Shown piece after piece: positions 21,326-63,738 of a DNA stretch of 64,000 nt. The translations under genes and the position numbers were made by a program. Where the stretch lies: assembly GCA_003116995.1 (NCBI GenBank), contig BDSL01000050.1:310001-374000 (forward strand). The letters run 5' to 3'. This stretch comes from Yamagishiella unicocca. Its lineage: Eukaryota; Chlorophyta; Chlorophyceae; Chlamydomonadales; Volvocaceae. A model generated the notes under the pieces. It saw only the letters and a list, made by a program, of their open reading frames with translations, ran no database searches and was not told where the DNA came from. Position 1 is the first letter of the stretch. Each line of letters opens with the position of its first letter.

Positions 21326-24300
21326 CTACGTCTCCGACCACTTCACAGCCCCAGCGCTCGCGTCGTTGCCGTCACGCTGCCCTGCGCCGTCCTCCCCCCC
21401 TCCAGGGAGGGCCGCCCCGTCGCCCGCCCCATCGGGCCCCCCCCTGACGCCCGGCCCTACATCCCCTGCTGCCTCAGCCGCCTCGCCGCCAGCAGCCGCC
21501 GGCTCCTCCTTGAAGGCCTCCGGTTCCGGAGCTTGCAGCTTGACGGCTTCCGGTTCCGGAGCTTGCAGTTTGACGGCCTCCGGTTCCGGAGCTTGCAGCT
21601 TGACGGCCTCCGGTTCCGGAGCTTGCAGCTCAAACAGCGGATTCGGCACGTCTATCGTACCCCCGGGCTGCAGCTCGCCCCCGTCACTGCTCCTAGGCGG
21701 CGGCGGCGGAGGTGCAGCAGCAGCAGCCGCAGCCCCTACCGCAACCATCACATCCCCGTCCTCTTCGGGGCCGCGCGGGGGCGGCGGCGGCGGCGGCGAC
21801 GGCGACGGCGGCAGCGCGTCCACCGTCACCGACACCGCCGTGCCTGCCGCCGCCGCCGCTGACGGGTCCATGTCGATGACGTGCGGGGGACCGAAGGCAT
21901 CCAGCTCGCCCGCCGCCGGCGACCACCGCCGCCGCCGGTAGTGCACCACCACCGACACCGTGATCAGCAGCACCAGCGTAAAGCCGACGACGAAGCACAC
22001 GATGATCGCGATCTGTCGAAGGCAACAGGCCGCGGCGCCGGAAGCGCGCCGGACACCGGTTTGGCATCGCGAACAGCAGCTAGTCAGTTTATTTCTCCAT
22101 TCATTTGTTAGTTTGTTTATTGGTTTGTTGGTTGCAGCGCGGGAAGGAAAGTAATATCAACAGCCTGGCACGCAGGGAAAACTGGAAAGCAGGAGCGAAG
22201 GGCAATTATGACCCGGCAGCACATGTTGCGTGCGCTGCCGTGCGCCCCCTTCGCGCGATCGCTTGCTTACCTGGCTGTTCGACAGGGCGTTGCCGTTTTG
22301 CTGCACGTCGGGACTCCCGCTGCCGCGGCTGTCGCTCTCCTGCAACGAGCCAGTCGGCGACGGCGTGCTGGGCAGCACCTCCTCCGCAGTGCCTACAGGC
22401 GCCGTCGCACCTGGCGCAAAGGCGCCGTCCACGATGGCCACACCCTCATCGCAGCCCTCCCGAGACACCAGCTGCATCACGCACGTGTCGGGGGCCTGGT
22501 CCGTCAGCGCGCCCTGCGCGCAGATCTCCGCCAGCGACAGCACGCTGGGCAGGCTGAACACCAGGGACAGCCGGGACGAGGCGCCGGCCCGGATGGCGCC
22601 GCGCGGCAGCGTGAGCGCGCCGCCGCGGACGAACAGCCCCAGCGGCGACTTGAACGTGTTAGCGGTGGGCGAAGCCGATGCGGCCTGCAGCTGCGCAGCC
22701 GCGGTTTCGGAGAGAAGCAGCCGCAGGAAGAGGGGCTGCGGAAGGTCGGCGAGCCACTCGGCGCAGCTGCCGCCGCCGCCGCCGGCGGCGGCTGCGGTGG
22801 CGGCGGCGGCTCGGAGGCGAACCGATACGATGGTGCCGTTCGCGCTGGCAACGTAGGAGCGCTTCACGGTGGCCTGCAAGCAGCCCTCCGAGCCGAAGAG
22901 CGGAAGCTCGCCCACGGGTAACGCCACGGGACCAAGGCCGGCGGAGCAGGCAGAGGCGCCGACGGCGAGGGCTTGGCTGCCGGGACCGGTGAGGTCCGAG
23001 GGCAAGGACGTGGAGGCGATTTCGGAGGAGCCCCACACGGCGACGCTGGCGCCAGCGCCGAGGCTGCTGGAGGGCGCTTGGGCGAGGCGTCGCCGCCGCT
23101 GGCTGAGGCGGTGGCGGGCTCCCCCCTCCTCCTGGGGGAGCCCCCCTTCCGCACTGCTCGTCCGAGGCCACGTGAGGGTGTACATCACGGACGAGCCGGC
23201 CGCGACGGTGTCCACGATCGTGACGGTCGGCAGCGGCGCCTGGGTGTACGGAATCGCCTGTACGACCGCCGTGACGCCGTCCTCCGAGGTGCGGGCGGCG
23301 GCGACGCCGCCGACGTCGACGTCGGCGGCGAGCAGCGCCGCGTCGACGACGAGGCTCCAGCCGAACACCGCCGCGCCCGACTCCGACGCGCTGACCAAGT
23401 ACGACACGGTCACCTGGGTCGCGGTTTCGGAGCTGTCGTACACGGACATGTCGTAGCCGGTGGAGGCCCAGGGCACGACGTCTTCGGGTACGGGCACGGG
23501 AATGGACGCGCCGGACGGCAGGGCGCTGGGCACTGGGGGCCTGGGCGTGGGAAGGGGAGGCTGGGCGGGGGGCTGTGCCGGGCGGTAGGCTGGGGGTTGG
23601 AAGGGGAAGGTCGGCTTCGGGCGCGAAGGTGGTGAGTGGCTTGGTTGTCCGTATGTGGGTGTGGGGGCGGGTGGCCGATCCTTGGAGGGGGCGATCGGCG
23701 GTGCGGCTTCGGGGCTCGGTACCGCTGGTGGGGACGGGCGGGTGGGCGGGGGCGGGGGCGAGGGCTCCAGTCGTGGGCTGGGCGGCAGCGGTTTCGGTGG
23801 CGTCGGTTGCGGGCTGGGCGGTGGCGGATTCGGTGGCGTCCGTTGCGGGCTGGGCGGCGGCGGTTGTGGTGGTGTCGGTTGCGGGCTGGGCGGCGGCGGA
23901 TTCGGTGGCGGCGGTTGCGGGCTGGGCGGCGGCGGTTGTGGTGGTGTCGGTTGCGGGCTGGGCGGCGGCGACATCGCCGGCTCCAGTTGTGGGCTGGGCA
24001 GCGGCGGGGCGCCAGGCTGGGCGCCAGGAGGTGAGGGAGCTTCGATCGGTGGGTTGGACGGTTGGGGCGACAGCGGTGGTGGACTGGGCAAAGTTCGCGA
24101 TGGTGCGTTGGGACTGGGCGGACTGAGCTCCAGGGAAGGCGGCGACGAGGGCAGGGGAGCCAATGGACTTTCGCCTGGCTGAGGGGGGGGCGGGGAGGGG
24201 GTCTCCGGGGGGTTTAGGGGCACCCCCGGAGGGGGGGTGCTCGAGGGCGACTCTGTCGGTTGGTCGGGGCTGCCGACTGGTTGCTGGGGAGTGGAAGGAG

Positions 24301-27300
24301 AAGGCGGGGGTCGAACTGGGGTCCAAGCGCTGGGCTGCAGGGGAGCAGAAGGGGACCCGTCGGCGGTGGGCTGCGCGGGTGAGCTGGTGGGCCCGGGTAG
24401 GATGGCGCTGGGGCTGGGGCTGGGCGGTTGGGAGGGCGGGGACGGCGGGGCATGCATGGTATCAGGGCTGGAGCCCTGGCCGCTGGCAGGTGGCTGATGA
24501 GGGGGGGACGTGGAGGGCACTGGGGGCCGCGAGGAGAGAGGCGGAGGATAGCTGGGCGGAGGGGCATTCAAGCCGGGTGGGCGTCGGGGGCCTTCTACAG
24601 GACCCGGTAGGCTTGGGCTGGCTTGTGGATGCTGGGGGGGTGAAGAGGTAGGTCCGGGTAGGGTAGGGCTGGATTCCGGCTGCTGGGGGGTTGAAGGGGT
24701 AGGTCCGGGTAGGGTAGGGCTGGATTCCGGCTGCTGGGGGGGTGAAGGGGCAGGTCCGGGTAGGGTAGGGCTGGACTCCGGCTGCTGGGGCGGTGAAGGG
24801 GTAGGTCCGGGTAGGGTAGGGCTGGATTCCGGCTGCTGGGGGGATGAAGAGGTAGGTCCGGGTAGGGTAGGGCTGGATTCCGGCTGCTGGGGGGATGAAG
24901 GGGTAGGTCCGGGTAGGGTAGGGCTGGATTCCGGCTGCTGGGGGGGTGAAGGGGTAGGTCCGGGTAGGGTAGGGCTGGATTCCGGCTGCTGGGGGGTTGA
25001 AGGGGTAGGTCCGGGTAGGGTAGGGCTGGATTCCGGCTGCTGGGGGGGTGAAGGGGCAGGTCCGGGTAGGGTAGGGCTGGATTCCGGCTGCTGGGGGGCC
25101 AAAGGGCTCAGTTGCTGTGGCGATGAAGGGGGGTTCTTGAGCGGACTCGGCGCCTTTGAAGGCTTCGGTGGAGGCCGAGGTGGCCGAGGTGGGCGGTACG
25201 GTGGCGGTGATGGCAACAACGGCAGTAATGGCAGTGACGGCGGGAAAGGCTTGGGGAAAGGCGGGGGCTTCTTTGGGCTTGGAGGCTTCCTTGGGCTTGG
25301 TGGTTTCTTAGCCGCACTCGGCGGGCTACTGCCTGGCTGCTGGGTAGGCGACGGTGATGGTGCAGTGGGGCTGGTAGCGGTACCAGGACCTGGTGTGGGA
25401 AGGGCAGGACTGTCCGGCCGCCCGGAAGGGGGAGATGGCCGTGGTGGTGACGGTGATCGCCGAGGGGGCGGGCGACGGCCAGTCGGGGTACTAAGCGGCA
25501 TTGGAGGTTGGCTAGTGGCAGGGGGACTAGGGGAAGCGCCTGGGAGTTGTGATGGAGGAGGCAGCACCGCTGGTGGCAAGGGAGGAGTCGATGGTGACTG
25601 GCCGGATGGTGAAGGGGATGGGCTGTCCACACCTGGGCTTGAGCCTGGCTGGCCCGATGGTGAAGGGGATGGGCTGTCCACACCTGGGCTAGAGCCTGGC
25701 TGGCCCGATGGTGAGGGTGAAGGGGATGGGCTGTCCACACCTGGGCTAGAGCCTGGCTGGCCGGATGGTGAAGGAGATGGGCTGTCCACACCTGGGCTAG
25801 AGCCTGGCTGGCCCGATGGTGAGGGTGAAGGGGTTGGGCTGTCCACACCTGGGCTAGAGCCTGGCTGGCCTGATGGTGAAGGAGATGGGCTGTCCACACC
25901 TGGGCTTGAGCCTGGCTGGCCCGATGGTGAGGGTGAAGGGGATGGGCTGTCCACACCTGGGCTAGAGCCTGGCTGGCCGGATGGTGAAGGAGATGGGCTG
26001 TCCACACCTGGGCTAGAGCCTGACTGGCCTGATGGTGAAGGGGATGGGTTGTCCACACCTGGGCTAGAGCCTGGCTGGCCTGATGGTGAAGGAGATGGGC
26101 TGTCCACACCTGGGCTAGAGCCTGGCTGGCCCGATGGTGAGGGTGAAGGGGATGGGCTGTCCACACCTGGGCTTGAGCCTGGCTGGCCTGATGGTGAAGG
26201 AGATGGGCTGTCCACACCTGGGCTAGAGCCTGGCTGGCCCGATGGTGAGGGTGAAGGGGATGGGCTGTCCACACCTGGGCTGGAACCTGGCTGGCCCGAT
26301 GGTGAAGGGGATGGGCTGTCCACACCTGGGCTAGAGCCTGGCTGGCTGGATGGTGAAGGGGATGGGCTGTCCACACCTGGGCTTGAGCCTGGCTGGCCTG
26401 ATGGTGAAGGAGATGGGCTGTCCACACCTGGGCTTGAGCCTGGCTGGCCCGATGGTGAGGGTGAAGGGGATGGGCTGTCCACACCTGGGCTTGAGCCTGG
26501 CTGGCCCGATGGTGAAGGGGATGGGCTGTCCACACCTGGGCTTGAGCCTGGCTGGCCCGATGGTGAGGGTGAAGGGGATGGGCTGTCCACACCTGGGCTT
26601 GAGCCTGGCTGGCCCGATGGTGAGGGTGAAGGGGATGGGCTGTCCACACCTGGGCTTGAACCTGGCTGGCCCGATGGTGAGGGTGAAGGGGATGGGCTGT
26701 CCACACCTGGGCTGGAACCTGGCTGGCCGGATGGTGAAGGGGATGGGCTGTCCACACCTGGGCTAGAGCCTGGTTGGCCCGATGGTGAAGGGGATGGGCT
26801 GTCCACACCTGGGCTAGAGCCTGGCTGGCCGGATGGTGAAGGGGATGGGCTGTCCACAACTGGGCTAGGGCCTGGCTGGCCTGATGGTGAAGGGGATGGG
26901 CTGTCCACACCTGGGCTTAAGCCTGGCTGGCCTGAAGGAGATGGGCTGTCCACACCTGGGCTAGAGCCTGGCTGGCCCGATGGTGAAGGAGATGGGCTGT
27001 CCACACCTGGGCTAGGGCCTGGCTGGCCTGATGGTGAAGGAGACGGGCTGTGCACACCTGGGCTTGAGCCTGGCTGGCCCGATGGTGAAGGAGATGGGCT
27101 AGCTTCACCTGGGCTAGGGCCTGGCTGGCCTGATGGTGAAGGAGATGGGCTGTCCATACCTGGGCTTGAGCCTGGCTGGCCCGATGGTGAGGGTGAAGGG
27201 GATGGGCTGTCCACACCTGGGCTGGAACCTGGCTGGCCTGATGGTGAAGGAGATGGGCTGTCCACACCTGGGCTTGAGCCTGGCTGGCCCGATGGTGAAG

Positions 27301-30300
27301 GGGATGGGCTGTCCACACCTGGGCTAGAGCCTGGCTGGCCCGATGGTGAGGGTGAAGGGGATGGGCTGTCCACACCTGGGCTGGAACCTGGCTGGCCCGA
27401 TGGTGAAGGAGATGGGCTGTCCACACCTGGGCTAGAGCCTGGCTGGCCCGATAGTGAAGGGGATGGGCTGTCCACACCTGGGCTTGAGCCTGGCTGGCCC
27501 GATGGTGAAGGAGATGGGCTAGCTTCACCAGGGCTAGGGCCTGGCTGGCCTGATGGTGAAGGAGATGGGCTGTCCATACCTGGGCTTGAGCCTGGCTGGC
27601 CCGATAGTGAGGGTGAAGGAGATGGGCTGTCCACACCTGGGCTTGAGCCTGGCTGGCTGGATGGTGAAGGGGATGGGCTGTCCACACCTGGGCTTGAGCC
27701 TGGCTGGCCTGATGGTGAAGGAGATGGGCTGTCCACACCTGGGCTGGAACCTGGCTGGCCCGATGGTGAGGGTGAAGGGGATGGGCTGTCCACACCTGGG
27801 CTTGAGCCTGGCTGGCCCGATGGTGAGGGTGAAGGGGATGGGCTGTCCACACCTGGGCTTGAGCCTGGCTGGCCCGATGGTGAAGGGGATGGGCTGTCCA
27901 CACCTGGGCTTGAGCCTGGCTGGCCCGATGGTGAGGGTGAAGGGGATGGGCTGTCCACACCTGGGCTTGAGCCTGGCTGGCCCGATGGTGAGGGTGAAGG
28001 GGATGGGCTGTCCACACCTGGGCTTGAACCTGGCTGGCCCGATGGTGAGGGTGAAGGGGATGGGCTGTCCACACCTGGGCTGGAACCTGGCTGGCCGGAT
28101 GGTGAAGGGGATGGGCTGTCCACACCTGGGCTAGAGCCTATCTGGCCGGATGGTGAAGGGGATGGGCTGTCCACAACTGGGCTAGGGCCTGGCTGGCCTG
28201 ATGGTGAAGGGGATGGGCTGTCCACACCTGGGCTTGAGCCTGGCTGGCCTGAAGGAGATGGGCTGTCCACACCTGGGCTAGAGCCTGGCTGGCCCGATGG
28301 TGAAGGAGATGGGCTAGCCACACCTGGGCTAGGGCCTGGCTGGCCTGATGGTGAAGGAGACGGGCTGTGCACACCTGGGCTTGAGCCTGGCTGGCCCGAT
28401 GGTGAAGGAGATGGGCTAGCTTCACCTGGGCTAGGGCCTGGCTGGCCTGATGGTGAAGGAGATGGGCTGTCCATACCTGGGCTTGAGCCTGGCTGGCCCG
28501 ATGGTGAGGGTGAAGGAGATGGGCTGTCCACACCTGGGCTTGAGCCTGGCTGGCCCGATGGTGAGGGTGAAGGGGATGGGCTGTCCACACCTGGGCTGGA
28601 ACCTGGCTGGCCTGATGGTGAAGGAGATGGGCTGTCCACACCTGGGCTTGAGCCTGGCTGGCCCGATGGTGAAGGGGATGGGCTGTCCACACCTGGGCTA
28701 GAGCCTGGCTGGCCCGATGGTGAGGGTGAAGGGGATGGGCTGTCCACACCTGGGCTGGAACCTGGCTGGCCCGATGGTGAAGGAGATGGGCTGTCCACAC
28801 CTGGGCTAGAGCCTGGCTGGCCCGATGGTGAAGGGGATGGGCTGTCCACACCTGGGCTTGAGCCTGGCTGGCCCGATGGTGAAGGAGATGGGCTAGCTTC
28901 ACCTGGGCTAGGGCCTGGCTGGCCTGATGGTGAAGGAGATGGGCTGTCCATACCTGGGCTTGAGCCTGGCTGACCCGATGGTGAGGGTGAAGGAGATGGG
29001 CTGTCCACACCTGGGCTTGAGCCTGGCTGGCCCGATGGTGAGGGTGAAGGGGATGGGCTGTCCACACCTGGGCTGGAACCTGGCTGGCCTGATGGTGAAG
29101 GAGATGGGCTGTCCACACCTGGGCTTGAGCCTGGCTGGCCCGATGGTGAGGGTGAAGGGGATGGGCTGTCCACACCTGGGCTGGAACCTGGCTGGCCCGA
29201 TGGTGAAGGAGATGGGCTGTCCACACCTGGGCTAGAGCCTGGCTGGCCCGATGGTGAAGGGGATGGGCTGTCCACACCTGGGCTTGAGCCTGGCTGGCCC
29301 GATGGTGAAGGAGATGGGCTAGCTTCACCTGGGCTAGGGCCTGGCTGGCCTGATGGTGAAGGAGATGGGCTGTCCATACCTGGGCTTGAGCCTGGCTGGC
29401 CCGATGGTGAGGGTGAAGGAGATGGGCTGTCCACACCTGGGCTTGAGCCTGGCTGGCCCGATGGTGAGGGTGAAGGGGATGGGCTGTCCACACCTGGGCT
29501 GGAACCTGGCTGGCCTGATGGTGAAGGAGATGGGCTGTCCACACCTGGGCTTGAGCCTGGCTGGCCCGATGGCGAAGGAGATGGGCTGTCCACACCTGGG
29601 CTTGAGCCTGGCTGGCCCGATGGTGAAGGGGATGGGCTGTCCACACCTGGGCTTGAGCCTGGCTGGCCCGATGGTGAGGGTGAAGGGGATGGGCTGTCCA
29701 CACCTGGGCTGGAACCTGGCTGGCCCGATGGTGAGGATGAAGGGGTTGGGCTGTCCACACCTGGGCTTGAGCCTGGCTGGCCCGATGGCGAAGGGGATGG
29801 GCTGTCCACACCTGGGCTTGAGCCTGGCTGGCCCGATGGCGATGGTGAAGGGGATGGGCTGTCCACACCTGGGCTTGAGCCTGGCTGTCCGGATGGTGAA
29901 GGATATGGGCTGTCCACACCTGGGCTTGAGCCTGGCTGGCCCGATGGTGAAGGAGATGGGCTGTCCATACCTGGGCTTGAGCCTGGCTGGCCCGATGGTG
30001 AGGGTGAAGGAGATGGGCTGTCCACACCTGGGCTTGAGCCTGGCTGGCCCGATGGTGAGGGTGAAGGGGATGGGCTGTCCACTCCTGGGCTAGAGCCTGG
30101 CTGGCCTGATGGTGAAGGAGATGGGCTGTCCACACCTGGGCTGGAACCTGGCTGGCCTGATGGTGAAGGGGATGGGCTGTCCACACCTGGGCTTGAGCCT
30201 GGCTGGCCCGATGGTGAAGGGGATGGGCTGTCCACACCTGGGCTAGAGCCTGGCTGGCCCGATGGTGAGGGTGAAGGGGATGGGCTGTCCACACCTGGGC

Positions 30301-33300
30301 TAGAGCCTGGCTGGCCTGATGTTGAGGGTGAAGGGGATGGGCTGTCCACACCTGGGCTAGAGCCTGGCTGGCCTGATGGTGAAGGGGATGGGCTGTCCAT
30401 ACCTGGGCTTGAACCTGGCTGGCCCGATGGTGAGGGTGAAGGGGATGGGCTGTCCACACCTGGGCTTGAGCCTGGCTGCCCCGATGGTGAAGGAGATGGG
30501 CTGTCCACACCTGGGCTTGAGCCTGGCTGGCCGGATGGTGAAGGAGATGGGCTGTCCACACCTGGACTTGAGCCTGGCTGGCCCGATGGTGACGGTGAAG
30601 GGGATGGGCTGTCCACACCTGGGCTTGAGCCTGGCTGGCCGGATGGTGAAGGAGATGGGCTGTCCACACCTGGGCTAGAGCCTGGCTGGCCGGATGGCGA
30701 GGGTGAAGGGGATGGGCTGTCCACACCTGGGTTTGAGCCTGGCTGGCCCGATGGTGAAGGAGATGGGCTGTCCACACCTGGGGTAGAGCCTGGCTGGCCG
30801 GATGGTGAGGGTGAAGGGGATGGGCTGTCCACACCTGGGCTTGAGCCTGGCTGGCCCGATGGCGAAGGAGATGGGCTGTCCACACCTGGGCTTGAGCCTG
30901 GCTGGCCTGATGGTGAGGGTGAAGGGGATGGGCTGTCCACACCTGGGCTAGAGCCTGGCTGGCCTGATGGTGACGGTGATGGAGATGGGCTGTCCACACC
31001 TGGGCTAGAGCCTGGCTGGCCGGATGGCGAGGGTGAAGGGGATGGGCTGTCCACACCTGGGCTAGAGCCTGGCTGGCCGGATGGTGAGGGTGAAGGGGAT
31101 GGGCTGTCCACACCTGGGCTAGAGCCTGGCTGGCCGGATGGCGAGGGTGAAGGGGATGGGCTGTCCACACCTGGGCTTGAGCCCGGCTGGCCGGATGGTG
31201 AGGGTGAAGTTGATGGGCTGTCCACACCTGGGCTAGAGCCTGGCTGGCCCGATGGTGAGGGTGAAGGGGATGGGCTGTCCACACCTGGGCTTGAGCCTGG
31301 CTGGCCCGATGGTGAAGGAGATGGGCTGTCCACACCTGGGCTGGAACCTGGCTGGCCCGATGGCGAAGGGGATGGGCTGTCCACACCTGGGCTGGAACCT
31401 GGCTGGCCTGATGGTGAAGGAGATGGGCTGTCCACACCTGGGCTGGAACCTGGCTGGCCTGATGGTGAAGGAGATGGGCTGTCCACACCTGGGCTTGAGC
31501 CTGGCTGGCCTGATGGTGAAGGAGATGGGCTAGCCACACCTGGGCTTGAGCCTGGCTGGTTGGCTTCACTGGGTGAGGGACTCGGCACTTCAGGGCCAGA
31601 GCCTGGTGGTTGGAAGGGGTAGGCCGGTGGGCTGAACGCTTCTGGTCCTGGCTGGTCTGGAGCCGGAGGTGGTGGGCTTGGGACATAGGGGCCCGAGCTT
31701 GGCGGATACGCTGGGGACGGTGTTATGGGTACTCCGGGGTTCAGCCCTGGCTCGTTGCTGGGCGACGGTGATGGGCTCGACACCTCTGGACCCATACCCG
31801 GGGGATTTGCGGGGCGTGGGGATGGGCTTGGCACACCAGGGCTGGAGTCTGGCTGGTTGGATGGCGGAGGAGACGGGCTGATCACGCCCGGGCTGCTCGG
31901 AGGGGGGTCTGAGGGTGAAGCTGATGCCGGCACCGGCATGGCTGCTGGGCTGCGACCGGGCTGCAGACTGGGTGCAGGTGACGGATAAGGAAGGCCGGGA
32001 GATGTTCCGGCCGGCATGGGAGGCACTGGGTTGCTGCCAGGCTCGCGAGGGGGTGTTGGGTTTGGTGGCGGCGGCGCCGGTGGCGGCGGTAAAATCGGCG
32101 ACGCCGGGGGGCTCGGAGCTGGAGGTGGTGGTTTCGGAGGCCCACGTGCTTCCGGCGGCAGATCCATGCCACCCAGCAGGCAGCAGTCGCCCGCGGGAGG
32201 CAGCCCTGAGTTGAAGACTGCGAACTTGCAGTTGGCCTCGCTGTAGCAGAGCTGCCCAATGGTGGCGCAGGGGAAGCCTAGCTGCAGGCAGACCTCCGAC
32301 CCAACTGCCACGGAGGCGTTCCACTCGAGGTTTGAGATCTTGAGCAGCGCGGAGGGGCCGAGGTCCGTGATCCACTGCCACGCCTTGCCACTGCGACCGT
32401 TGATGCTCACGCCGCGAACGGATCCAGCGCATAGGGGATCTGCAGGGGGGCCAGAGGCGGGTCGGTGGGTCGGTGGCCGCACAAGGCGCATGCGTCACGC
32501 GCTGTACTGGGCTTGGCGCCGGCTGGTCGGTCCGCAGCTCGTGGCCATGTTATGCTGCTCCGTGCCCACCCGAACCGAACCCCTGTTCGAGCCCACGCGC
32601 GAGTCCCCCCAGTAGACCCTTGTGCAGGGGCCAGCAGCCACCGCTGAGCTACCCTAGCGTGGTTGATGTACACCTAGGCCCCGTCACAGGGTGCTGACCC
32701 ATGGGGGCAGCAAATCCTCAAGAAGCCTAGCGACAGCCCCTGGGCCCCCCTCACGCCGTGGATTCGCGGATTCTCTTATCAAACCCCCTCACCCGAGTCC
32801 AGCTCCAGCTTGTGCAGGTCGACTGTCATCGACTCGCAGCAGCTCCGAGAGCGGGTTTCGTTGCGTATGCCATCACACGAGCGGACCTGCTCCACCCGGA
32901 AGCAGCTGCGAATGGTGCCGTCTCTCTGGGGATGGGGGGGCGGCGAGAGGACCCGGTTGGGGGGGGGGGAGGCAACCGCCGAACACCAGCCATGGGGGGG
33001 GGGCAAAGCAAGGGGCCCAAGCTTGGGGCCACGGGGTTACTTGCTAAACTCCAAACTCCAGCCCATGCCCGGCGAACCTCGCACTCCCGCACAATCCATG
33101 CCCAAGTGGCGGCTTGGAACCCCCCTCAAGTCCACCACTACTAGCAGTCGCGAACACCCTGTCCGCCGCCCTGCACGTACCAACACTCTTGTGCTATTAA
33201 ACACCAAATCGTACGGGTTGTTGGAGATGCCGCGACCGCATCGGCAGTACGGGAACTGTGCTCGGCTGCAACAGGGGAGAGAGAACATGTGCCCAGGGAG

Positions 33301-34153: not shown

Positions 34154-34200
34154 ACAGCTTGATTCCTGCGTGTTAAAAGATGTGGGCGCGTTAGACCGTT

Positions 34201-34324
34201 CGATACTGGAGTATCGGCTGTCGTCAACGCGAGGCCAAATCCGATGCGCAGTTCACTGGGCAGTGAACGCCTGTAGTGACCCAGATATGCTGCATATTCG
34301 GTATGGTGCGATTACAGCGTAATC
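34201..34324. promoter_or_regulatory. Cluster of four perfect palindromes 48-171 bp upstream of the pherophorin A start codon
   Basis: 34201-34216 cgatact-gg-agtatcg; 34251-34268 gttcactg-gg-cagtgaac; 34285-34297 atatg-ctg-catat; 34310-34324 gattac-agc-gtaatc. They fall in the promoter or 5' UTR of gene A. The function is unknown. They could be dyad sites for regulators, RNA hairpins or remnants of a small element. Confidence 0.4.
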
Positions 34325-35762: not shown

Positions 35763-35850
35763 ACGTGCGGCTCCACCTGCCCCTTCCCAGATTGGCGGCT
35801 CCACCTGCCCCTTCCCAGATTGGGTGGCTCCACCTGCCCCTTCCCCCAAA
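35763..35850. repeat. About 29-bp minisatellite, three copies
   Basis: Three copies of ggctccacctgccccttccc with short variable ends. A two-copy 31 bp repeat (aacaatacgcgccgtgtcca) follows at about 35870-35930. Confidence 0.88.
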
Positions 35851-36079
35851 TCCGCTGCGTCCCAAGAAACCCAAACAATACGCGCCGTGTCCATCAAACC
35901 CAAACAATACGCGCCGTGTCCATCACAGACACGACCTGGCTGCCTACAACAAACACACACACGAACTTCACAAGGCAGCCGGGGACCAGGTCCCATGAAT
36001 CCTAAAACACCGCACGCTCACGCCTGAGATACACACCAAAACAGACAAGCACACGAGAAACCGATCATAATGTCGGGCG

Positions 36080-36188
36080 TCACAAACACACACAAACACA
36101 CATAATAAGTACACACAAACACACACAAACACACACACACACATAATAAGTACACACAAACACACACAAACACACACACACACACACA
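36080..36188. repeat. CA-rich array with internal duplication
   Basis: cacacacaaacacaca tracts; a segment starting at ataataagtacacac is duplicated in tandem. Confidence 0.88.
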
Positions 36189-36366
36189 TCACGGCAGCCT
36201 TGGCCGCTCGCTTGGCCCACAGTCAAGGTCAACACCGCATCACTTCCTCGGTCCGCAAATCCGGCACGGCGGCGCAGCGAGGGACGGGGCTCAGCCCAGG
36301 GCGCGCTGCGGGCTGCGCTGCGCTGCGACAGCAGGTGGGCCCGCGCGAGTACCGGTATTGCGCTCT

Positions 36367-36538
36367 GCTGGTTGGGACAAACGCCCAGGTGGCTGGAACA
36401 AACGCCCAGGTGGTTGGAACAAACGCCCAGGTGGTTGGAACAAACGCCCAGGTGGTTGGAACAAACGCCCAGGTGGTTGGAACAAACGCCCAGCGGGTGA
36501 GTATTACGCTCAGCTGGTTGGAACAAACGCCCAGGTGG
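36367..36538. repeat. 21-bp minisatellite abutting and entering the 3' end of pherophorin B
   Basis: Six tandem copies of aacaaacgcccaggtggttg lie downstream of the stop codon, in gene sense. A seventh copy lies inside the coding sequence, where it encodes the C-terminal TWAFVPT. Confidence 0.92.
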
Positions 36539-54500: not shown

Positions 54501-57500
54501 GGAGGGGCTTGACGGCGGTGACGGGTAGGCAGGTGGGTACGACGGCGGTGGGCTGTCAACCACCTCTGGCGGGTCGTTCGGTGGCGGCAAGGCCGGCGGC
54601 GGTAAGGCTGGCGGCGGTGAGCCTGGCGAAGGTCGCGGTGTTGGTGGCGGCCGTGGCGGCTTCGGCGGCCGCGGCGGGCGGCTGAGCGGCGGGCTTGGAG
54701 GGCTTGGTGGCGCAGGTGGCGGTAGCGGAGGGCTTGGCGGCGGCGGCGGCGGCGGCAGAAGTGGCGGGTTGCCTGGGTAGCCAGGTGGCGGCGCCAGGGG
54801 AATGGAGGGGCTTGACGGCGGCGGCGGATAGGCAGGTGGATACGACGGCGGTGGGCTGTCAACCACCTCTGGCGGGTCGTTCGGTGGCGGCAAGGCCGGC
54901 GGCGGTAAGGCTGGCGGCGGTGAGCCTGGCGAAGGTCGCGGTGTTGGTGGCGGCCGTGGCGGCTTCGGCGGCCGCGGCGGGCGGCTGAGCGGCGGGCTTG
55001 GAGGGCTTGGTGGCGCAGGTGGCGGTAGCGGAGGGCTTGGCGGCGGCGGTGGCGGTGGCGGAAGTGGCGGGTTGCCTGGGTAGCCAGGTGGCGGCGCCAG
55101 GGGAATGGAGGGGCTTGACGGCGGTGACGGGTAGGCAGGTGGGTACGACGGCGGTGGGCTGTCAACCACCTCTGGCGGGTCGTTCGGTGGCGGCAAGGCC
55201 GGCGGCGGTAAGGCTGGCGGCGGTGAGCCTGGCGAAGGTCGCGGTGTTGGTGGCGGCCGTGGCGGCTTCGGCGGCCGCGGCGGGCGGCTGAGCGGCGGGC
55301 TTGGAGGGCTTGGTGGCGCAGGTGGCGGTAGCGGAGGGCTTGGCGGCGGCGGCGGCGGCGGCAGAAGTGGCGGGTTGCCTGGGTAGCCAGGTGGCGGCGC
55401 CAGGGGAATGGAGGGGCTTGACGGCGGCGGCGGGTAGGCAGGTGGATACGACGGCGGTGGGCTGTCAACCACCTCTGGCGGGTCGTTCGGTGGCGGCAAG
55501 GCCGGCGGCGGTAAGGCTGGCGGCGGTGAGCCTGGCGAAGGTCGCGGTGTTGGTGGCGGCCGTGGCGGCTTCGGCGGCCGCGGCGGGCGGCTGAGCGGCG
55601 GGCTTGGAGGGCTTGGTGGCGCAGGTGGCGGTAGCGGAGGGCTTGGCGGCGGCGGTGGCGGTGGCGGAAGTGGCGGGTTGCCTGGGTAGCCAGGTGGCGG
55701 CGCCAGGGGAATGGAGGGGCTTGACGGCGGTGACGGGTAGGCAGGTGGGTACGACGGCGGTGGGCTGTCAACCACCTCTGGCGGGTCGTTCGGTGGCGGC
55801 AAGGCCGGCGGCGGTAAGGCTGGCGGCGGTGAGCCTGGCGAAGGTCGCGGTGTTGGTGGCGGCCGTGGCGGCTTCGGCGGCCGCGGCGGGCGGCTGAGCG
55901 GCGGGCTTGGAGGGCTTGGTGGCGCAGGTGGCGGTAGCGGAGGGCTTGGCGGCGGCGGTGGCGGCGGCGAAAGTGGCGGGTTGCCTGGGTAGCCGGGTGG
56001 CGGCGCCAGGGGAATGGAGGGGCTTGATGGCGGCGGCGGGTAGGCAGGTGGGTACGACGGAGGCGAGGCCGGCGGCGGGGGCCTCATCCTTGGTGGATGC
56101 AGGGCCGGCGGCTGCGGCGAAGGAGGGCGGCTTTCGGATGGTAGGATGCCGTCCGGTGGATCCGCGATGGGGCTTGGAGGCCTTGGTGGAGAGCGCGGCT
56201 TTGGAGGGCGCCTCAGCGGCGGGCTCTGAGGGCTTGGAGGGCTTGGTGGTGTTGGCGGAACGTGCGGGTTACTGGGAGGTGGTGCGAATGGAGGCGAGGG
56301 GCTTGCGGGGGGCGAAGGGTTCGATGGTGGGTATGCTGGGGGGAACGGGTGGTCTGGTGGGTGCGCCGGCGGCGGGCTGGTAACCAACTCTGGTGGACCG
56401 GGTGAGGGGCTCGGCGGCGGCGAGGCCGGCGGCGATGAAGTGGGGTTAGGGCTGGGCGGGGGCTGCGGAGGCTTGGGCTCGGGGCTGGGCGGCGGTGGCG
56501 AAGGAGGCTGAGGGCTCGGAGGCAGTGGTGGAGGACTGGGAGGGGGCTGTGGAGGCCTGGGCTCGGGGCTGGGCGGTGGTGGCGAGAGCGGCTGAGGGCT
56601 CGGCGGCGCTGGGGAAGGGTTGGATGGTGGCAATGACGGCGGCGGGTATCCTGGTGGCGAGGGGCTGCTCGGTGGAAAGAACGGATTCGGCGCTGGACTT
56701 GGGGTTGGAGACGGCGGCATTGGGGAAGGCCGTGGTGGCGGCGGCGGCATGCGAGGCGGCTTGGGCTCGGGGCTGGGAGGTGGTGGCGAGAGCGGCTGAG
56801 GGCTTGGAGGCAGTGGTGGGGGACTGGGAGGGGGCTGCGGAGGCTCGGGCTCGGGGCTGGGCGGTGGCGGCGAGAGCGGCTGAGGGCTCGGAGGCAGTGG
56901 TGGGGGATTGGGAGGGGGCTGTGGAGGCTTGGGCTCGGGGCTGGGCGGTGGTGGCGAGAGCGGCTGAGGGCTCGGCGGCGCTGGGGAAGGGTTGGGTGGC
57001 GGCAATGACGGCGGCGGGTATCCTGGTGGCGAGGGGCTGTTCGGTGGAAAGAACGGATTCGGCGGTGGGCTTGGGGTTGGAGACGGCGGCATTGGGGAAG
57101 GCCGTGGCGGCGGCGGCGGCGTGGGAGGCGGGTTGGGCTCGGGGCTGGGCGGTGGTGGCGAAACCGGCTGAGGGCTCGGAGGCAGTGGTGGGGGACTGGG
57201 AGGGGGCTGTGGAGGCTTGGGCTCGGGGCTGGGAGGCGGTGGCGAAACCGGCTGAGGGCTCGGAGGCAGTGGTTGGGGACTGGGAGGGGGCTGTGGAGGC
57301 CTGGGCTCGGGGCTGGGCGGTGGTGGCGAGAGCGGCTGAGGGCTCGGCGGCGCTGGGGAAGGGTTGGGTGGCGGCAATGACGGCGGCGGGTATCCTGGTG
57401 GCGAGGGGCTGTTCGGTGGAAAGAACGGATTCGGCGGTGGGCTTGGGGTTGGAGACGGCGGCATTGGGGAAGGCCGTGGCGGCGGCGGCGGCGTGGGAGG

Positions 57501-60500
57501 CGGGTTGGGCTCGGGGCTGGGCGGTGGTGGCGAAACCGGCTGAGGGCTCGGAGGCAGTGGTGGGGGACTGGGAGGGGGCTGTGGAGGCTTGGGCTCGGGG
57601 CTGGGAGGCGGTGGCGAAAGCGGCTGAGGGCTCGGAGGCAGTGGTGGGGGACTGGGAGGGGGCTGTGGAGGCTTGGGCTCGGGGCTGGGAGGCGGTGGCG
57701 AAACCGGCTGAGGGCTCGGAGGCAGTGGTTGGGGACTGGGAGGGGGCTGTGGAGGCTTGGGCTCGGGGCTGGGCGGTGGTGGCGAAACCGGCTGAGGGCT
57801 GGGTGGGGGACTGGGCGGTGGTGATGACGGCGGTGGATACCCTGGTGGGGGTGGGGACGACGGCTCCGGAGCAGGGCTTGGGGCTGGAGGTGGTGGTGAT
57901 GGGGAGGGTGGTGGAGAGCGTGGAGGGGAGCGTGGTTTCGGAGGCGGCCGCGGATTCTTAGGCGGTGGAGACAACGACAGCGGCGGCGACGCCTTTGGTG
58001 GCGGCAGGAACGGCGGTGATGGGCTGAGGGGAGCCGGCAGCGGCGGCGAAAGGATCGGCGACGGCGGCATCGGCGACGTGGGAGGCGCCATCGGTGGCGG
58101 CGACGGCGTCGGTGATGGGGGCGCGTTAGGCGGGGGGGATGACGGTGGTGGAACAGATGGCGGATCAACAGGTGGTGGCGGCGACGGTGACGGAGGTGGC
58201 GGCCCAGGCGGAGGTGGCGGCGCCGGTTCTGGGCTCGGGACGGGCGGCAGCGGTGGCGCCGGCAGCGGCGGCTGAGCATTGGGCGGGGGTCGTGACGGCG
58301 GCGGCCTTGGTGCCATGGGCGATATGGGCGGAAGGCTGGGTGGCGGTAGCACCGGGGGTTCGGGCCTCGGGGGGCTTGGGCTCGTTCCGCTTGGAGGAGA
58401 GGCGGGTGCCGGAAAGAGCGGCGGTGATGGGGCCTGCGGCGACGGCGAAGCGGGTGGAGTCGCCGGGCTTGGGAGCACGGGCGGTGGCGGGGATGGAGAT
58501 GGGGACGACGCCGGAGGGGAGCGAGGCGGGGGTCGCGATTTGGGAGGCGGCCTCGGCGGGTTGGGTGGCTTCGGCGGCGCCGACAGAGGAGCTGGCGGCG
58601 GGGTAGGGGGCCTCGGCGGCGGCGATGCGGCGGGCTTCGGGGGAGGTTTTGGAGCCCTGGGAACCTTCGGGAATTTAGGCGGGGGACGAGGGTTTGGTGG
58701 AGACTTTGGGGACTTCCTAGGAGATGGCGGTAGCGGGGCCGGCGGGGGCGGCGGGCCGGCAGAGGCAGGCGGCGCGTCCGGTGTTGGTTGCGGTGGTGTT
58801 TGGGGTTCGGTTGGTGAAGGTTGGGATGGGGACGGCGCAGGGCTGGGCGTAGAGGGTGAGGGCGGGGGGGGCTGGGCGGCGGCAGCTGTGGCGGCGAGGG
58901 CGGCGGAGGGCTGGGCGGCGGCAGCTGTGGCGGCGAGGGCGGCGGAGGGCTGGGCGGCGGTAGCTGTGGCGGCGAGGGCGGCGGGGGGCTGGGCGGCGGT
59001 AGCTGTGGCGGCGAGGGCGGCGGAGGGCTGGGCGGCGGTAGCTGTGGCGGTAAGGGAGGCGGAGGAAGAGGCGAGGGCGCCGGAGGATGCGGCGAGGGAG
59101 GCGGAGGACGCGGCGAGGGAGGCGGAGGATGCGGCAACGGCACGGACGGTGATGAAGGGGCGCTTGGAGGCGGGGGGTTGGGAGAAGGCCGTGGCGATGG
59201 AGGTGGGCTCTGGAAGCCGGACGGAGCTAGCGGCGAGCTTGGCGGCGGCGGCTGCGAGGGAGCCTCCAGTGGCGTTGACCCCGGCTGGGGGCTCGGCGGC
59301 GGCGGCGACGGCGGCACGGGGCTCGGCGGCGGCGGCGAGGGCGGGATGGGGCTCGGTGGCGGGGGCGAAGGGGGGATGGGGCTTGGTGGGGGTGGACTCG
59401 GGGTAGAGCTTCGCCTGGCGGCGGCGGGGGATTAGCCTCCGGTGGCCGCGTCGATGGGGTGCTAGGTGGCGGAGATGGCGGCGGCGAGTGAGATGCTGGC
59501 GGAGATGGGGGGCTGGTTGGCGGAGGTGGCGGCGGCGAGTGAGATGCTGGCGGAGGTGGGTTATTCTTCGGAGGTGGCACACCCAGCTGGGGGCTGGGTG
59601 GTGGTGGTGGTGGCGGCGGCGGCGGCGGCGACTGCGCCCTAGGCGGCGGTGAGGGATCCGTCCGGGGTGGCGGTGGCGGTGGCGACACCGGCTGACGGCT
59701 GGCTGGAGGCGGTGACCGCACCCGCGGCGATGGCGGCGAGCGCGCTTGCGGTGGCGGCGACGGGTCCTCCACTGCTGGCGGCGATCCTGGCGGAGGACTG
59801 GCTGGCGGCGGCGACGGCGGCAGCGACGGCGGCGGCGGCGATCGATTCTCCTCTGCTGGCGGCGATCCTGGCGGAGGACTGGCTGGCGGCGGCGACGGCG
59901 GCAGCGACGGCGGCGGCGGCGATCGATTCTCCTCTGCTGGCGGCGAACCTGGCGGAGGACTGGCTGGCGGCGGCGGCGAGGGATTTTCCTCTGCTGGCGG
60001 CGATCCTGGTTGGCGGCTGACTGGCGGCGGCGACCGCACCCGCGGTGATGGGGGCGACCGTGCCCGTGGCGGCGGCGGGGAATCTCCCTCCGGTGGTGGT
60101 GGTGGTGAAGACTCTTGCGGAGGATTTGCTGGCGGCGGCGGGGAATTTCCCTCCGGTGGTGGTGGTGGTGGTGGTGGTGACGACTCTTGCGGAGGATTTG
60201 CTGGCGGCGGGGGCGGCGGCGGCGGCGGCGAGCGAGCTGCTGGCGGCGGCGGGCTGTCCGCCTGAGGTGGCGACGCCGGCGGGGGGCTGGCTGGCAGCGG
60301 CGACGATGGCGCTCGCGGCAGTGGCGGCGGCGAGGGATCCCCCAGTGGCGTTGACCCCGGCTGGGGACTCGGCGGCGGCGGCGACGGCGGCAGGGGGCTC
60401 GGCGGCGGAGGCGAGGGCGGAATGGGGCTCGGTGGCGGGGGCGAAGGGGGGATGGGGCTTGGTGGTGGGGGGCTCGGCGGCAGAAGCTCGTCGGATCGGC

Positions 60501-63500
60501 CCAGTGGGTCTTCCTCCTGATTTGCTGAAGTCAGCGGTGTTGTGAGGGTACGCGGAGACGGCGGCGAGTTACCTTTCGGTAGCGGCTGTGCCGGCGGCGG
60601 CGCTTTTGGGTTGGGACTTTGCGGGGGTGAGGCCGGTGGGGGGTCGACGGGCAGGCGGCCCGGCGGCCCGAGCGCCGCCTGTGTCCCGCCGACGGGTGGT
60701 GCAGTGACTGGAGACGGCGACGAGATCTCTCGCGGCAGTGGCGGCGGCGGTGGCGGCGTCGTCGCGCCCATCGGTGGGCCCAATTCCAAGTCCCCAAACA
60801 TACAACAGTACGACCCGTCGACCGGTAACCCCGAGTTTGACCACACGGAGAACCTGCAATGGGGGGGTGGAAGGGACGGAGGAGCGGCCGCGATGTTGGG
60901 CCCTTGCACCCCCCCAGCGCATCCCCCCACAAGGGAACTACATACACCCCGTTGACCCGGTACGACATGACCCGGTACGACATGACACGGGTGGTACGAC
61001 ATGACACGGATGGTACGACACGGGGCGGCGCTGCGCATGGTGTTCAGCTGCGATCCGGCTTCGTCCGTACTGCGTACTGCAAAGTACCGTGCAGTGTGGG
61101 GCCGCGGCGACCCCGTACCGCGTACACGGCAGGCGGGTACTTCGCGGCATATGTATGCCGTAGATACGTCAGCGCCCCAACGGGGCGCGTTACGTTGGGA
61201 TCAATACCAACCGCCCGTTCACCGCCCGACCAAGATGACGCGACCGTACGAGTCGCAGAGTACGGCAGCCCGCAAACGCCGTACTCCTCACCGTCAAGCC
61301 ATCCCAAAGGGTGCCCCAAGCCCGCCCTTTCACAGGGCGCCCCTCACGGACAGGGACCTCTCCCGCCCCCCGCTGCCGTAATCGAGCGACCCTCGCCACC
61401 TGGTCCAGGATTCTAGCCGTGCCCGCACCGGAGGGGCTCCACCAGCGACGCAACGAACCCTACGCGTCGCACGCGTCCCGTACTTCTCCCCTTCGCCTCC
61501 CCCCTCCCCTCCCCAAAACACACGCACACACACATACACAAACACACACACACACACACGCGCGACCCCTGTACGACACCGTTTTCAGTTGGCCCCCCTC
61601 CCTCCGTTAGCCTGGCCCGAGCCCAGCCCCCCAGGCGGCCTCGCACCCCCTGACCTGCCAGACGGCTCGTTGTAGAAGAGCTGCTCCAGGGAGGGACAGG
61701 GGCCGCCCAGCCTGAGGCAGAACTCCGTCTGCAGAGCCTGCGAAAGGGGGGGTGGGAGGGGGGAGGCGACGCGCCGGAACGCAGCCAGCCGAATGGAGGC
61801 CTGGGGGAAGCGTGTTTTGGTCCATACATGCCCTCATTCCACAGGCGTGTTCTTCCCCAAATCCAAGTAAAGCAAACAAGCCCTCCAACCATCAAACGCA
61901 GGCCGATCGAATCCATACGATGCCGTCTGGCCGATTCGCCCCCTCAGAGGGACCGTTCCGCTCCCTTGACCCGCCGACTACTGGTGTGGGGCTTTGGCCA
62001 TCATCCGCCGTATGGGCCAGAGGCTGGCTGGAGGTGGAATCCAGGCCGCTAGGTCCCGTCCGCTCCGAAACCTGCCGTACAGTAGACACTAGTGCCGTAC
62101 AGTACATACCTGCGTGTTGCTGAGGTTGAGGCCTGTCTGCTTGAGCACAGCGGAGGGTCCCGCCTTCGTCACCCACGTCCACTCGTTGCCCGGCGCGCCG
62201 TTGGTGGCGCTGCTGAGGACGCTGCCCTGGCATTGCGGATCTGAAAACGCACGCGCACCGCAGCAGTCGCAGCAGCGGGGTCGTCAGTAGCAGCAGCAGA
62301 AACACCAGCAGCATTAGCAGCAGCGGGGTCAGTAGCAGCAGCAGAAACACCAGCAGCAGTAGCAGTAACAGCAGCAGCAGCAGCAGGGCCAGCGCCAGCA
62401 ATAGATAGGCGGGAGGGTTTGCCGTAAAGGCCTTGAAGCTCAGGCCTACAAAGCTGGCTCAGCTGGCCCAGCGACTGGCCCAGCGACTGGCCCAGCGACT
62501 GGCCCAGCGACTGACCCAGGCGGTAGTCAGGTCCATTGCCTAAGATGCGAGTACTTCCTAGACCGTGTACCGGTATCGACCCCACACAGCCGGCCCTGCC
62601 CTGCGGGACCCTGCGGGGCCAGCAGCACTGGCGGGAAGTGCCCTTTGGACCGGCAGGCCACCCCACAGGCAGCACGACACCGGGGGTGTGCCCCCCCCCC
62701 CACAGTCGAGTTACCGGTTTTTTACTTATAACCCCCACAGGCAGGCCACGTTGTGGGGATGGTGTCACCCCCACCGATATACCGGTATCTTCATCGCCCT
62801 TGGTTTGTCGGCCATGGATTCGCGGATACCATTATCTACTCTGAACGACAGCAGGCAGCACAGCACTGGGGGGGTGTCCCGCGGCCCGGTAATGCCTTCC
62901 TGCACGCCCTCTTTGGGCCCCAGACCCAACCCCGTGTTCGTTCGTTCACCCCCTAGGCTCCTCTTTACGCCGCATGAGGGAGGCCATAAAACCCTAAACC
63001 CGAGGGTCAACTCTGAAGGTCGGCCGGCCTCACCTATCTCCAGGTATATCTTGTGGACACCTCGGAGCACCTCCCGGCAGCACAGCCCCGGTCTCGCCTC
63101 TAGGCCGTCGCAGGATCTGGAGGAGGTTAATCGGAGGCACACCTCCAACGTGCCATCGCCCTGCAGCCCGGATGGTGAGGTAGCGGGCAGGGAGCGGGCG
63201 CAGGTTTGGGTGGGGATGGGTTTGACAGTTTGAATGCATCACAACAAGCGGCCATGAAATGTTAAGCTGTGTTCCGGTGGCGCTGGCCGGGCCACCCAAA
63301 CCTCAAGTGCTGCAGCCGACCCCACAGGTATCCTCTGACACCCCCTTTCCCCAGTTCTCCAGCATGCATCTCAAATCGTCTGTTCTAAACGGTTTCTTCT
63401 CGCATCCACGGGTCTTCCTCGAACCCCACAACCAAACTGCGGCAACCCAGTCTTGCAAGCGCAAAAATGCAAGCCAGCGCGCAACCACCTGCCATTCCGA

Positions 63501-63738
63501 CCTGACCCAGGCTACATAAGGACCTTGGAGTATCCCCATTGAGTAGCGACGCCAAGATAACCTCCGAACCCTTCTCGCATCGTAACCCGGAAAACCCTAC
63601 ACCCCTTCCGAACCCTTTTCACAGTGTAACCCCAATCCCCAAGTCCGGCTCACCATCGGCGTCTTGCGGCTTATAGTGAGGCCGTACGGATTACTAATCG
63701 TGCCCTTAGCACAGCGGCCGTACGGGAACGCCGGGTGG
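36510..63738 (-). CDS. Giant pherophorin B, membrane-anchored paralogue of A (5' partial; two apparent frameshifts)
   Basis: Exons in the window (- strand): 63738-63654, 63160-63034, 62240-62110, 61737-61655 and 60853-36510; the signal-peptide exons lie beyond the edge. Pherophorin domain: FPYGRCAKGTISNPYGL, LEVCLRLTSSRSCDG, CCREVLRGVHKIYLEI, CQGSVLSSATNG, WTWVTKAGPSAVLK, CLRLGGPC, RFSVWSNSG and YCCMFG. The first exon is 85 bp with the same phases as in gene A. The last exon (24.3 kb) encodes a Pro-rich rod of over 7,000 residues. An ectodomain follows (WTSTGYDMSTYDS ... GALEDQLPDTCVLQLL), then a TM helix (ALVVCLVVGFVVLIIIVV), HRRRK and a tail of about 115 aa ending at 36510. The visible product would be about 8,250 aa. 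The frame shifts at G tracts 59400-59403 and 58864-58871; each is explained by one missing base. Read literally, translation would stop at 59227. FPYG replaces the usual FPYC/FPFC cysteine. Sequence error is the likeliest cause of the shifts; a decaying gene is the alternative. Confidence 0.82.
38930..39190 (-). repeat. 12-bp repeat (APPT) in pherophorin B
   Basis: About 20 tandem ggtgccgttggc units encode APPTAPPTAPPT near the membrane-proximal end of the rod. This is the shortest-period array in the gene. Confidence 0.93.
39347..48597 (-). repeat. 132-bp (44-residue) Tyr-containing rod repeat of pherophorin B
   Basis: Roughly 70 tandem units of the form PPPPYGSSPTPSPSVLPP ... PQPPSYADSPPPPSNAPPYG. 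Each has three regular Tyr residues (PPYG, PPSY, PPYG) in an extensin-like SPPPP context. Some units carry an extra PPYGQPASPP module. Longer-range duplication is visible, for example near-identical blocks at about 41280-41790 and 41990-42500 (708 bp offset). Confidence 0.95.
48660..56075 (-). repeat. About 303-bp (97-104 residue) rod repeat of pherophorin B
   Basis: About 25 tandem units containing DPPEVVDSPPPSYPPAYP, SIPLAPPPGYPGNPPL, a long PPPPPPPSPPLPPPAPP run and RPPRPPKPPRPPPTPRPS. Unit length varies between 291 and 312 bp, always by multiples of three. Basic PRPPKPPRPP blocks alternate with Tyr-bearing blocks. A 918 bp block at 49826-50743 recurs at 51044-51961. Confidence 0.95.
56400..57860 (-). 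repeat. 372-bp higher-order repeat with nested SPEPKPPQPPPSP units in pherophorin B
   Basis: Three long units, marked by NPFFPP ... SPSPPGYPPPSLPPPNPSP near 56629, 57001 and 57373, are separated by shorter units such as SPPPPSPEPKPPQPPPSP. Periods are multiples of three. Confidence 0.88.
58871..59050 (-). repeat. 39-bp repeat (PPSPPQLPPPSPP) in pherophorin B
   Basis: About five tandem 13-residue units. The proper frame here lies one base off both the upstream and downstream segments, see the frameshift findings. Confidence 0.85.
59773..60010 (-). repeat. 81-bp (27-residue) repeat in pherophorin B
   Basis: Two full copies and partial flanking copies encode SPPPGSPPAEENRSPPPP followed by SLPPSPPPA. 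They lie in the rod segment nearest the pherophorin domain. Confidence 0.87.
60954..61022. repeat. Tandem ccggtacgacatga repeat in a pherophorin B intron
   Basis: Four degenerate units (acccggtacgacatg x2, acacgggtggtacgacatg, acacggatggtacgac) between the exons ending at 61655 and starting at 60853. Confidence 0.88.
61508..61562. repeat. (CA)n tract in a pherophorin B intron
   Basis: Interrupted cacacaca run. Confidence 0.88.
62262..62398. repeat. CAG-rich compound repeat in a pherophorin B intron
   Basis: Runs of cag/agc triplets with a larger duplicated block (agcagcggggtc ... cagaaacaccagcagca). It lies in the intron upstream of the exon 62240-62110. Confidence 0.87.
62465..62520. repeat. 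12-bp repeat (cagcgactggcc) in a pherophorin B intron
   Basis: Four to five near-perfect tandem copies. Confidence 0.9.

What the first reader, a model, noticed from the sequence alone, without database searches (positions are those of the whole stretch)
21326..63738. Tandem pair of giant membrane-anchored pherophorins
Both genes combine a pherophorin domain, a rod of thousands of residues, a shared C-terminal ectodomain, one strong TM helix (22012-21926 in A; about 36960-36870 in B), a basic stop-transfer cluster and a cytosolic tail. Seen in sequence: the two share order, strand, intron phases and C-terminal motifs. Established: pherophorins are secreted, matrix-forming glycoproteins with Pro-rich rods. 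Inference: these proteins tether the cell wall or matrix to the plasma membrane over very long distances and may report wall state through the tail. I know of no described volvocine protein with this full plan.
Basis: partly seen in the sequence, partly recalled or inferred. Interest (0 to 1): 0.88.

Follow-up and report, generated by a model that had tools for sequence, protein, structure and literature searches.

The report
Giant membrane-anchored algal matrix protein pair
Two neighbouring genes of a green alga appear to encode enormous proline-rich rods with a matrix-protein domain at one end and a single membrane anchor at the other, a likely physical link between the cell and its surrounding matrix whose anchor half also occurs in a single-celled relative.

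Summary
The observation largely holds. A spliced model of gene A (33265-21326, minus; 3,690 aa from its first resolved exon) gives a complete pherophorin domain (PF12499, E=1.2e-27), a 2,879-aa Pro/Ser rod, a ~370-aa ectodomain, one TM helix and a 205-aa tail. B (63738-36510) has the same order (PF12499 E=3.5e-19; rod about 7,570 aa; TM; 121-aa tail), but the assembly changes frame twice inside its rod, so B's full-length chain is inferred. Repeat copies in both rods differ mainly at synonymous sites in the predicted frame. The ectodomain matched no Pfam family; one six-frame search found it only in A and B in this genome. It recurs with the TM, basic cluster and a GAVxW tail end in two Chlamydomonas schloesseri proteins with consecutive locus tags; a TM-plus-tail tree pairs A with one and B with the other, so the pair is probably older than the Chlamydomonas-Volvox split. 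Those relatives lack PF12499, so pherophorin plus TM is shown only here. Best reading: type I membrane-anchored matrix tethers, working like MST3 or SAG1; not MST3-like by the tests run, SAG1 homology untestable here. Signal peptides unresolved; signalling is speculation. New variant of a known kind.

The parts
33181..33265 (-). A, first resolved exon: N-terminal part of the pherophorin domain (FPYCRCGRG...), phase-2 acceptor, phase-0 donor
   Evidence: PF12499 on the spliced domain
32793..32925 (-). A exon 2: middle of the pherophorin domain, phase-1 donor
22271..32439 (-). A exon 3: rest of pherophorin domain, Pro/Ser rod (array of 17- and 19-aa units at 31559-25598 plus other repeats), C-terminal ectodomain
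22271..23506 (-). A ectodomain (IPVPVPEDVVPWASTGYDMSVYDSS...), with RRRRLAQ candidate cleavage site
22013..22270 (-). A intron 3 (258 nt, GTAAGC...GACAG, phase 0) directly before the TM
   Evidence: homologous junction in P0001
21944..22012 (-). A transmembrane helix IAIIVCFVVGFTLVLLITVSVVV, followed by HYRRRRW
21326..21943 (-). A cytosolic tail, 205 aa, ending AGAVKWSET and stop
33810..33900 (-). A, candidate upstream exon (GLAALAVGQGEINAEDYINYDWDYDSAALV) with a phase-2 donor; start codon and signal peptide not found
   Evidence: unproven
63654..63738 (-). B first resolved exon of the pherophorin domain (FPYGRCAKG...)
63034..63160 (-). B exon 2 of the pherophorin domain
62110..62240 (-). B exon 3 of the pherophorin domain
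61655..61737 (-). B exon 4 of the pherophorin domain
58877..60853 (-). B exon 5, first part: end of pherophorin domain and start of rod; Pro-rich frame changes at about 59400 and 58877
36510..58876 (-). B exon 5, main part, one frame: rod (303-bp and 132-bp repeat arrays), ectodomain, TM, tail, stop
36945..38084 (-). B ectodomain (PFDIPEAVVLWTSTGYDMSTYDSQ...)
36876..36944 (-). B transmembrane helix IALVVCLVVGFVVLIIIVVALFV, followed by HRRRK
   Evidence: helix in model
36510..36875 (-). B cytosolic tail, 121 aa, ending QGPATWAFVPTS and stop

Best explanation
A and B are an old tandem pair of type I membrane glycoproteins. A pherophorin domain at the outer tip binds matrix glycoproteins or glycans; a hydroxyproline-rich polyproline-II rod of up to 0.9 micrometre (A) or about 2.2-2.3 micrometre (B) spans the inner matrix; a conserved beta-rich juxtamembrane ectodomain, one TM helix and a short tail with conserved motifs hold it in the plasma (or ciliary) membrane. 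They act as long tethers or rulers between cell surface and matrix, and may be cut at the Arg-rich site inside the ectodomain. Shown from sequence: domain order, splice-site fit, frame constraint in the rods, TM, conservation of the C-terminal half with C. schloesseri. Inferred: secretion, Hyp modification, topology, tethering, and that B is one chain. Speculative: cleavage, signalling.
For: PF12499 in both; rods constrained in the predicted frame; ectodomain homology A-B, B-P0001 E=1e-47 and A-P0002 E=2e-62; TM with neutral or acidic outer side and net +2 to +6 in the 15 residues inside, in 4 of 4 sequences that reach the TM; splice-to-TM junction that fits P0001; relatives P0001/P0002 with consecutive locus tags and equal contig length, and TM+tail tree pairing A with P0001 and B with P0002 (AU 0.991 against 0.009 and 0.009). 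Precedent: MST3, 8,572 residues, likely tethers mastigonemes by a membrane domain, and free PPII helices span hundreds of nanometres (PMC11015965, passages). Pherophorin domains are thought to be lectin-like (PMC6313938, PMC4235416, passages).
Against: No signal peptide was resolved in either gene. B needs two frame changes inside its rod, and no TGTAA (the volvocine poly(A) signal, recalled) follows B's stop for 1.9 kb, against 268 nt in A. The three relatives have no PF12499 match, so the pherophorin tip is not shown to be conserved with the anchor. The ectodomain tree does not settle the pairing: AU 0.674 for A with B, 0.376 for the pairing of the tail. A first pairwise BLAST of B (with part of its rod) against P0001 gave no useful alignment; with the ectodomain alone it did. 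No expression or localisation data.
Confidence: 0.6

Rival explanations
1. They are gamete or ciliary adhesion receptors of the sexual-agglutinin type: the rod holds an adhesive head away from a ciliary or gamete membrane, and the precursor is cut so that the C-terminal part stays in the membrane, as for SAG1.
For: SAG1 is cleaved into the N-terminal agglutinin and an integral-membrane SAG1-C65 (PMC4362204, passages); MAR1 is single-pass with a long tail and PPSPX repeats (PMC8777248, passages). PPSP followed by non-Pro occurs 11 times in A and 62 times in the three pieces of B. An Arg-rich RRLAQ stands in the ectodomain of A, P0001, P0002 and P0003, 4 of 5 sequences; B has RQLRQ.
Against: No agglutinin sequence could be compared here. 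SAG1/SAD1 are called multi-pass in one review. Both genes sit together in one genome and their relatives seem to be neighbours in C. schloesseri, whereas SAG1 and SAD1 act in opposite mating types.
Confidence: 0.2
2. They are ciliary-shaft proteins like MST3, the axis of mastigonemes.
For: Same gross plan and size class for B (about 8,256 aa by count; MST3 8,572).
Against: The MST3 P13...P11(XXP)3 motif occurs 0 times in A and in the three pieces of B; longest Pro run 5 in A and 11 in B. One TM helix, and no PKD family hit in the parts scanned (whole A ORF, B ectodomain to stop, A tail).
Confidence: 0.05
3. The functional product is a secreted matrix protein: A by retention of intron 3 (stop at 22157 before the TM) or by shedding, B because its reading frame is really broken or its two parts belong to two transcripts.
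For: The A ORF stays open through the donor to a stop at 22157; two frame changes in B.
Against: TM and juxtamembrane residues are conserved between A, B and two C. schloesseri proteins. At both B sites the sequence is one base shorter than a neighbouring in-frame copy, one of them in a run of C, as expected of an assembly slip (sequences printed, compared by eye). The main B frame is constrained.
Confidence: 0.12

Closest known systems
Pherophorins (PF12499; e.g. SSG185, PhG of Volvox carteri)
   Same: PF12499 domain; Pro-rich rod after it
   Different: Typical members are dumbbells with globular pherophorin domains at both ends and rods averaging 89 aa in V. carteri (PMC9818292, passages); here the C-terminal globe is another domain, with TM and tail, and rods are 2,879 and about 7,570 aa
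MST3 of Chlamydomonas mastigonemes
   Same: Giant (8,572 aa) Hyp-rich rod, C-type lectin domains near the N-terminus, C-terminal membrane domain (PMC11015965, passages)
   Different: MST3 ends in a PKD2-like multi-helix domain and has P13/P11(XXP)3 repeats; neither found here. B's rod and unresolved first exons were not scanned for C-type lectins
Sexual agglutinins SAG1/SAD1 and MAR1
   Same: Hyp-rich region on the cell or ciliary membrane, integral-membrane C-terminal part (PMC4362204, PMC8777248, passages)
   Different: Homology of heads not testable here; no pherophorin domain is mentioned for them in the passages read
HYH02_003632 and HYH02_003633 of Chlamydomonas schloesseri (uncharacterised)
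   Same: Rod, same ectodomain, same TM, juxtamembrane cluster and GAVxW tail end
   Different: Much shorter rods; Cys-bearing repeats of 135-165 aa with no Pfam match instead of PF12499
Yeast wall sensors Wsc1/Mid2
   Same: Single TM with an O-glycosylated extracellular region, cited as analogues for algal channels with Hyp-rich domains (PMC6704257, passages)
   Different: No homology tested

Membership tests
Pherophorin family | PF12499 domain | tested here: met
   A E=1.2e-27, B E=3.5e-19
Pherophorin family | Second pherophorin domain at the C-terminal end of the rod | tested here: not met
   No PF12499 in either ectodomain at E<=1; profile-profile probability 0.12 of 100
Pherophorin family | Pro-rich rod between globular ends | tested here: met
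Pherophorin family | Soluble, secreted, no TM (recalled as typical) | tested here: not met
   TM helices in both models
MST3-like | PKD2-like C-terminal membrane domain | tested here: not met
   No such Pfam hit in the C-terminal parts; one hydrophobic helix
MST3-like | P13...P11(XXP)3 repeats | tested here: not met
   0 in A and 0 in the three pieces of B
Sexual agglutinins SAG1/SAD1 | Sequence homology of head domain | not testable with these tools
   No agglutinin sequence at hand; paper not held
Sexual agglutinins SAG1/SAD1 | Cleavage into adhesin and integral-membrane part | tested here: inconclusive
   Only a conserved Arg-rich site seen
Sexual agglutinins SAG1/SAD1 | Gamete-specific expression | not testable with these tools
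   No expression data
Ectodomain-TM-tail family with HYH02_003632/003633 | Ectodomain homology plus TM and juxtamembrane basic cluster | tested here: met
   B against P0001 E=1.3e-44 and 1e-47; A against P0002 E=2e-62; alignments

The most novel reading that the evidence does not exclude
A and B are the long-missing plasma-membrane receptors or linkers for the volvocine matrix: an ancient tandem pair, possibly working as two partners, that physically couples a micrometre-thick extracellular matrix to the cell and reports its state through conserved tail motifs, with the matrix-binding tip swapped to a pherophorin domain on the way to multicellularity.
Probability: 0.22. Interest if true: 0.82.

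Novelty: new variant of a known kind. Interest (0 to 1): 0.52.

Why it matters
How volvocine cells are joined to their matrix is open: the wall-integrity paper whose passages I read proposes sensors but reports no homologues of the plant wall receptor kinases (CrRLK1L, WAK) in Chlamydomonas (PMC6704257). A gene pair with a matrix-protein tip, a rod as long as matrix zones are thick, and a cytosolic tail gives a directly testable candidate, and the different tip domains in C. schloesseri and in this genome suggest a route by which anchors were re-aimed.
Full report
What is in the window. The window lies in a 133-Mb genome of 1,415 contigs. A search with PF12499 gave 161 matches there, not all of them listed; one listed match lies in this window, in A. 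V. carteri has 118 and C. reinhardtii 35 pherophorins (PMC9818292, passages), so I take this to be a volvocine alga rich in pherophorins; the species was not determined.

Gene models. A: exons 33265-33181, 32925-32793, 32439-22271, 22012-21326, introns of 255, 353 and 258 nt, 3 of 3 GT-AG. B: exons 63738-63654, 63160-63034, 62240-62110, 61737-61655 and 60853 to the stop at 36510, introns of 493, 793, 372 and 801 nt, 4 of 4 GT-AG. The spliced N-terminal domains match PF12499 over positions 1-147 (A) and 1-138 (B) of 148. Two introns match in position and phase (0 and 1), and the first resolved exon of each has a phase-2 acceptor, though the exon before it is not proven. B has two more introns (phases 0 and 2); A has one more (phase 0) at the TM. 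No first exon or signal peptide was resolved.

The rods. A's rod has 2,879 residues, 34% Pro and 29% Ser; B's main frame has 6,930, 51% Pro, about 7,570 if the two pieces upstream are counted. At 3.1 angstrom per residue for PPII (PMC11015965, passage) these would be 0.9 and 2.2-2.3 micrometres if fully extended. Long open frames alone mean little in such repeats, since other frames are open too. The better test is how repeat copies differ: single differences from the consensus codon are synonymous in 183 of 195, 120 of 153 and 34 of 41 cases in the predicted frame (28-30% expected), and in 1-18% in the two other sense frames; one antisense frame reaches 75-90%, below the sense value in each array. 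Units without the standard length or anchor were dropped: 93 of 109 anchors of the A array were used, 35 of 52 of the B 44-aa array and 15 of 23 of the B 101-aa array. Copies are related to one another, so these are not independent events.

A weak point of B. In the assembly the Pro-rich frame changes at about 59400 and 58877. Coding runs up to both points from both sides, so introns do not fit; in each case the sequence is one base shorter than a nearby in-frame copy (by eye). I read this as probable assembly slips, but it is not proven, and a broken B is possible. Downstream of the stops, a TGTAA lies 268 nt after A's but only 1,906 nt after B's (that TGTAA is the volvocine poly(A) signal is recalled).

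The C-terminal half. The ectodomains of A and B share 36% identity over 376 aa. No Pfam family, no solved relative by sequence, no relation to pherophorin domains at this sensitivity. In this genome one protein search with B found four places at E<=10: B, A, A's TM exon, and an unrelated TM protein. Outside, three searches (candidates capped) found three relatives: P0001 = HYH02_003632 and P0002 = HYH02_003633 of Chlamydomonas schloesseri, and P0003, an unnamed ENA protein that stops inside the ectodomain. Pairwise, B matches P0001 at E=1e-47 and A matches P0002 at E=2e-62; an earlier comparison that included part of B's rod gave no useful alignment. The 4 of 5 sequences that reach it have the TM, a basic cluster inside, and a tail ending in GAVxW (A, P0001, P0002) or PATW (B). 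A's splice junction puts the TM exactly where P0001 has it. On TM plus tail, the tree joins A with P0001 and B with P0002 (AU 0.991; others 0.009 each); on the ectodomain, A with B (0.674) and that pairing (0.376) cannot be told apart and only the third is rejected (0.022). The tail alignment is short and low in complexity, so an origin of the pair before the Chlamydomonas-Volvox split is likely rather than shown.

What differs from relatives. P0001, P0002 and P0003 carry no PF12499 match at E<=1, although a source names P0002 a pherophorin-domain protein. P0001 and P0002 carry Cys-bearing repeats (the likeness between the two proteins' repeats is weak, 19-24%), and P0003 resembles P0002 there. 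Their gene models may lack true 5' exons. So the anchor module is old and the tip may have been exchanged.

How it may work. Shown: order of parts, TM, frame constraint, conservation. Inferred from known families: Hyp glycosylation and PPII rods; lectin-like binding by pherophorin domains; type I topology from the basic cluster. The lengths suit matrix layers: the V. carteri gonidial vesicle layer is about 1 micrometre and can stand up to 8 micrometres from the cells, while the C. reinhardtii wall is 200 nm (PMC9818292, passages). The Arg-rich RRLAQ site in a variable loop, present in A, P0001, P0002 and P0003, with RQLRQ in B, could be cut by subtilisin-like convertases, which have been proposed to act on Chlamydomonas pherophorins (PMC6313938, passages), giving a SAG1-like two-part protein; this is a guess.

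Comparison with the known. MST3 shows that giant membrane-anchored Hyp proteins exist; SAG1 and MAR1 show that Hyp-rich membrane proteins serve adhesion. None has, in the passages I read, a pherophorin tip with a single-pass anchor. I found no paper with pherophorin and 'membrane-anchored' (0) or 'single-pass' (0). The 11 papers with pherophorin and 'transmembrane' were seen as a listing with the starts of abstracts; passages were read in two of them, where, in the passages shown, the two terms concern different proteins. Searches were read as listings, with passages from PMC9818292, PMC11015965, PMC4235416, PMC10762512, PMC8777248, PMC8835621 and PMC4362204. Subscription papers, including the agglutinin sequence paper, were not available.

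Noticed in passing
window 6497-6808, minus: MPN/JAB-domain exon (PF01398, E=9.2e-21), which reads by eye like an eIF3f-type subunit (name recalled).
   Followed up: partly
window 14716-15024, plus: JmjC-like exon (PF02373, E=8.6e-5, 23.4 bits against a cut-off of 24).
   Followed up: partly
window 22157-22271, minus: Retention of A's intron 3 would give a TM-less protein with a stop at 22157: a possible secreted isoform.
   Followed up: no
window 62300-62410, minus: CTG-type repeat in a B intron encodes Leu runs that mimic a TM helix; an automatic gene model could take it for one.
   Followed up: no
L011 (G000:C8:600782-601186, minus): Single-pass protein whose TM and tail resemble B's in composition and are followed by a kinase-like GQGGFGVVYRG motif; a receptor-kinase candidate.
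   Followed up: partly
P0001, P0002, P0003: Cys-bearing repeats of 135-165 aa without Pfam match in the relatives; possible undescribed extracellular domains.
   Followed up: partly
window 33810-33900, minus: Acidic, Tyr-bearing candidate exon (EINAEDYINYDWDYDSA) before A's pherophorin domain with a fitting phase-2 donor.
   Followed up: partly
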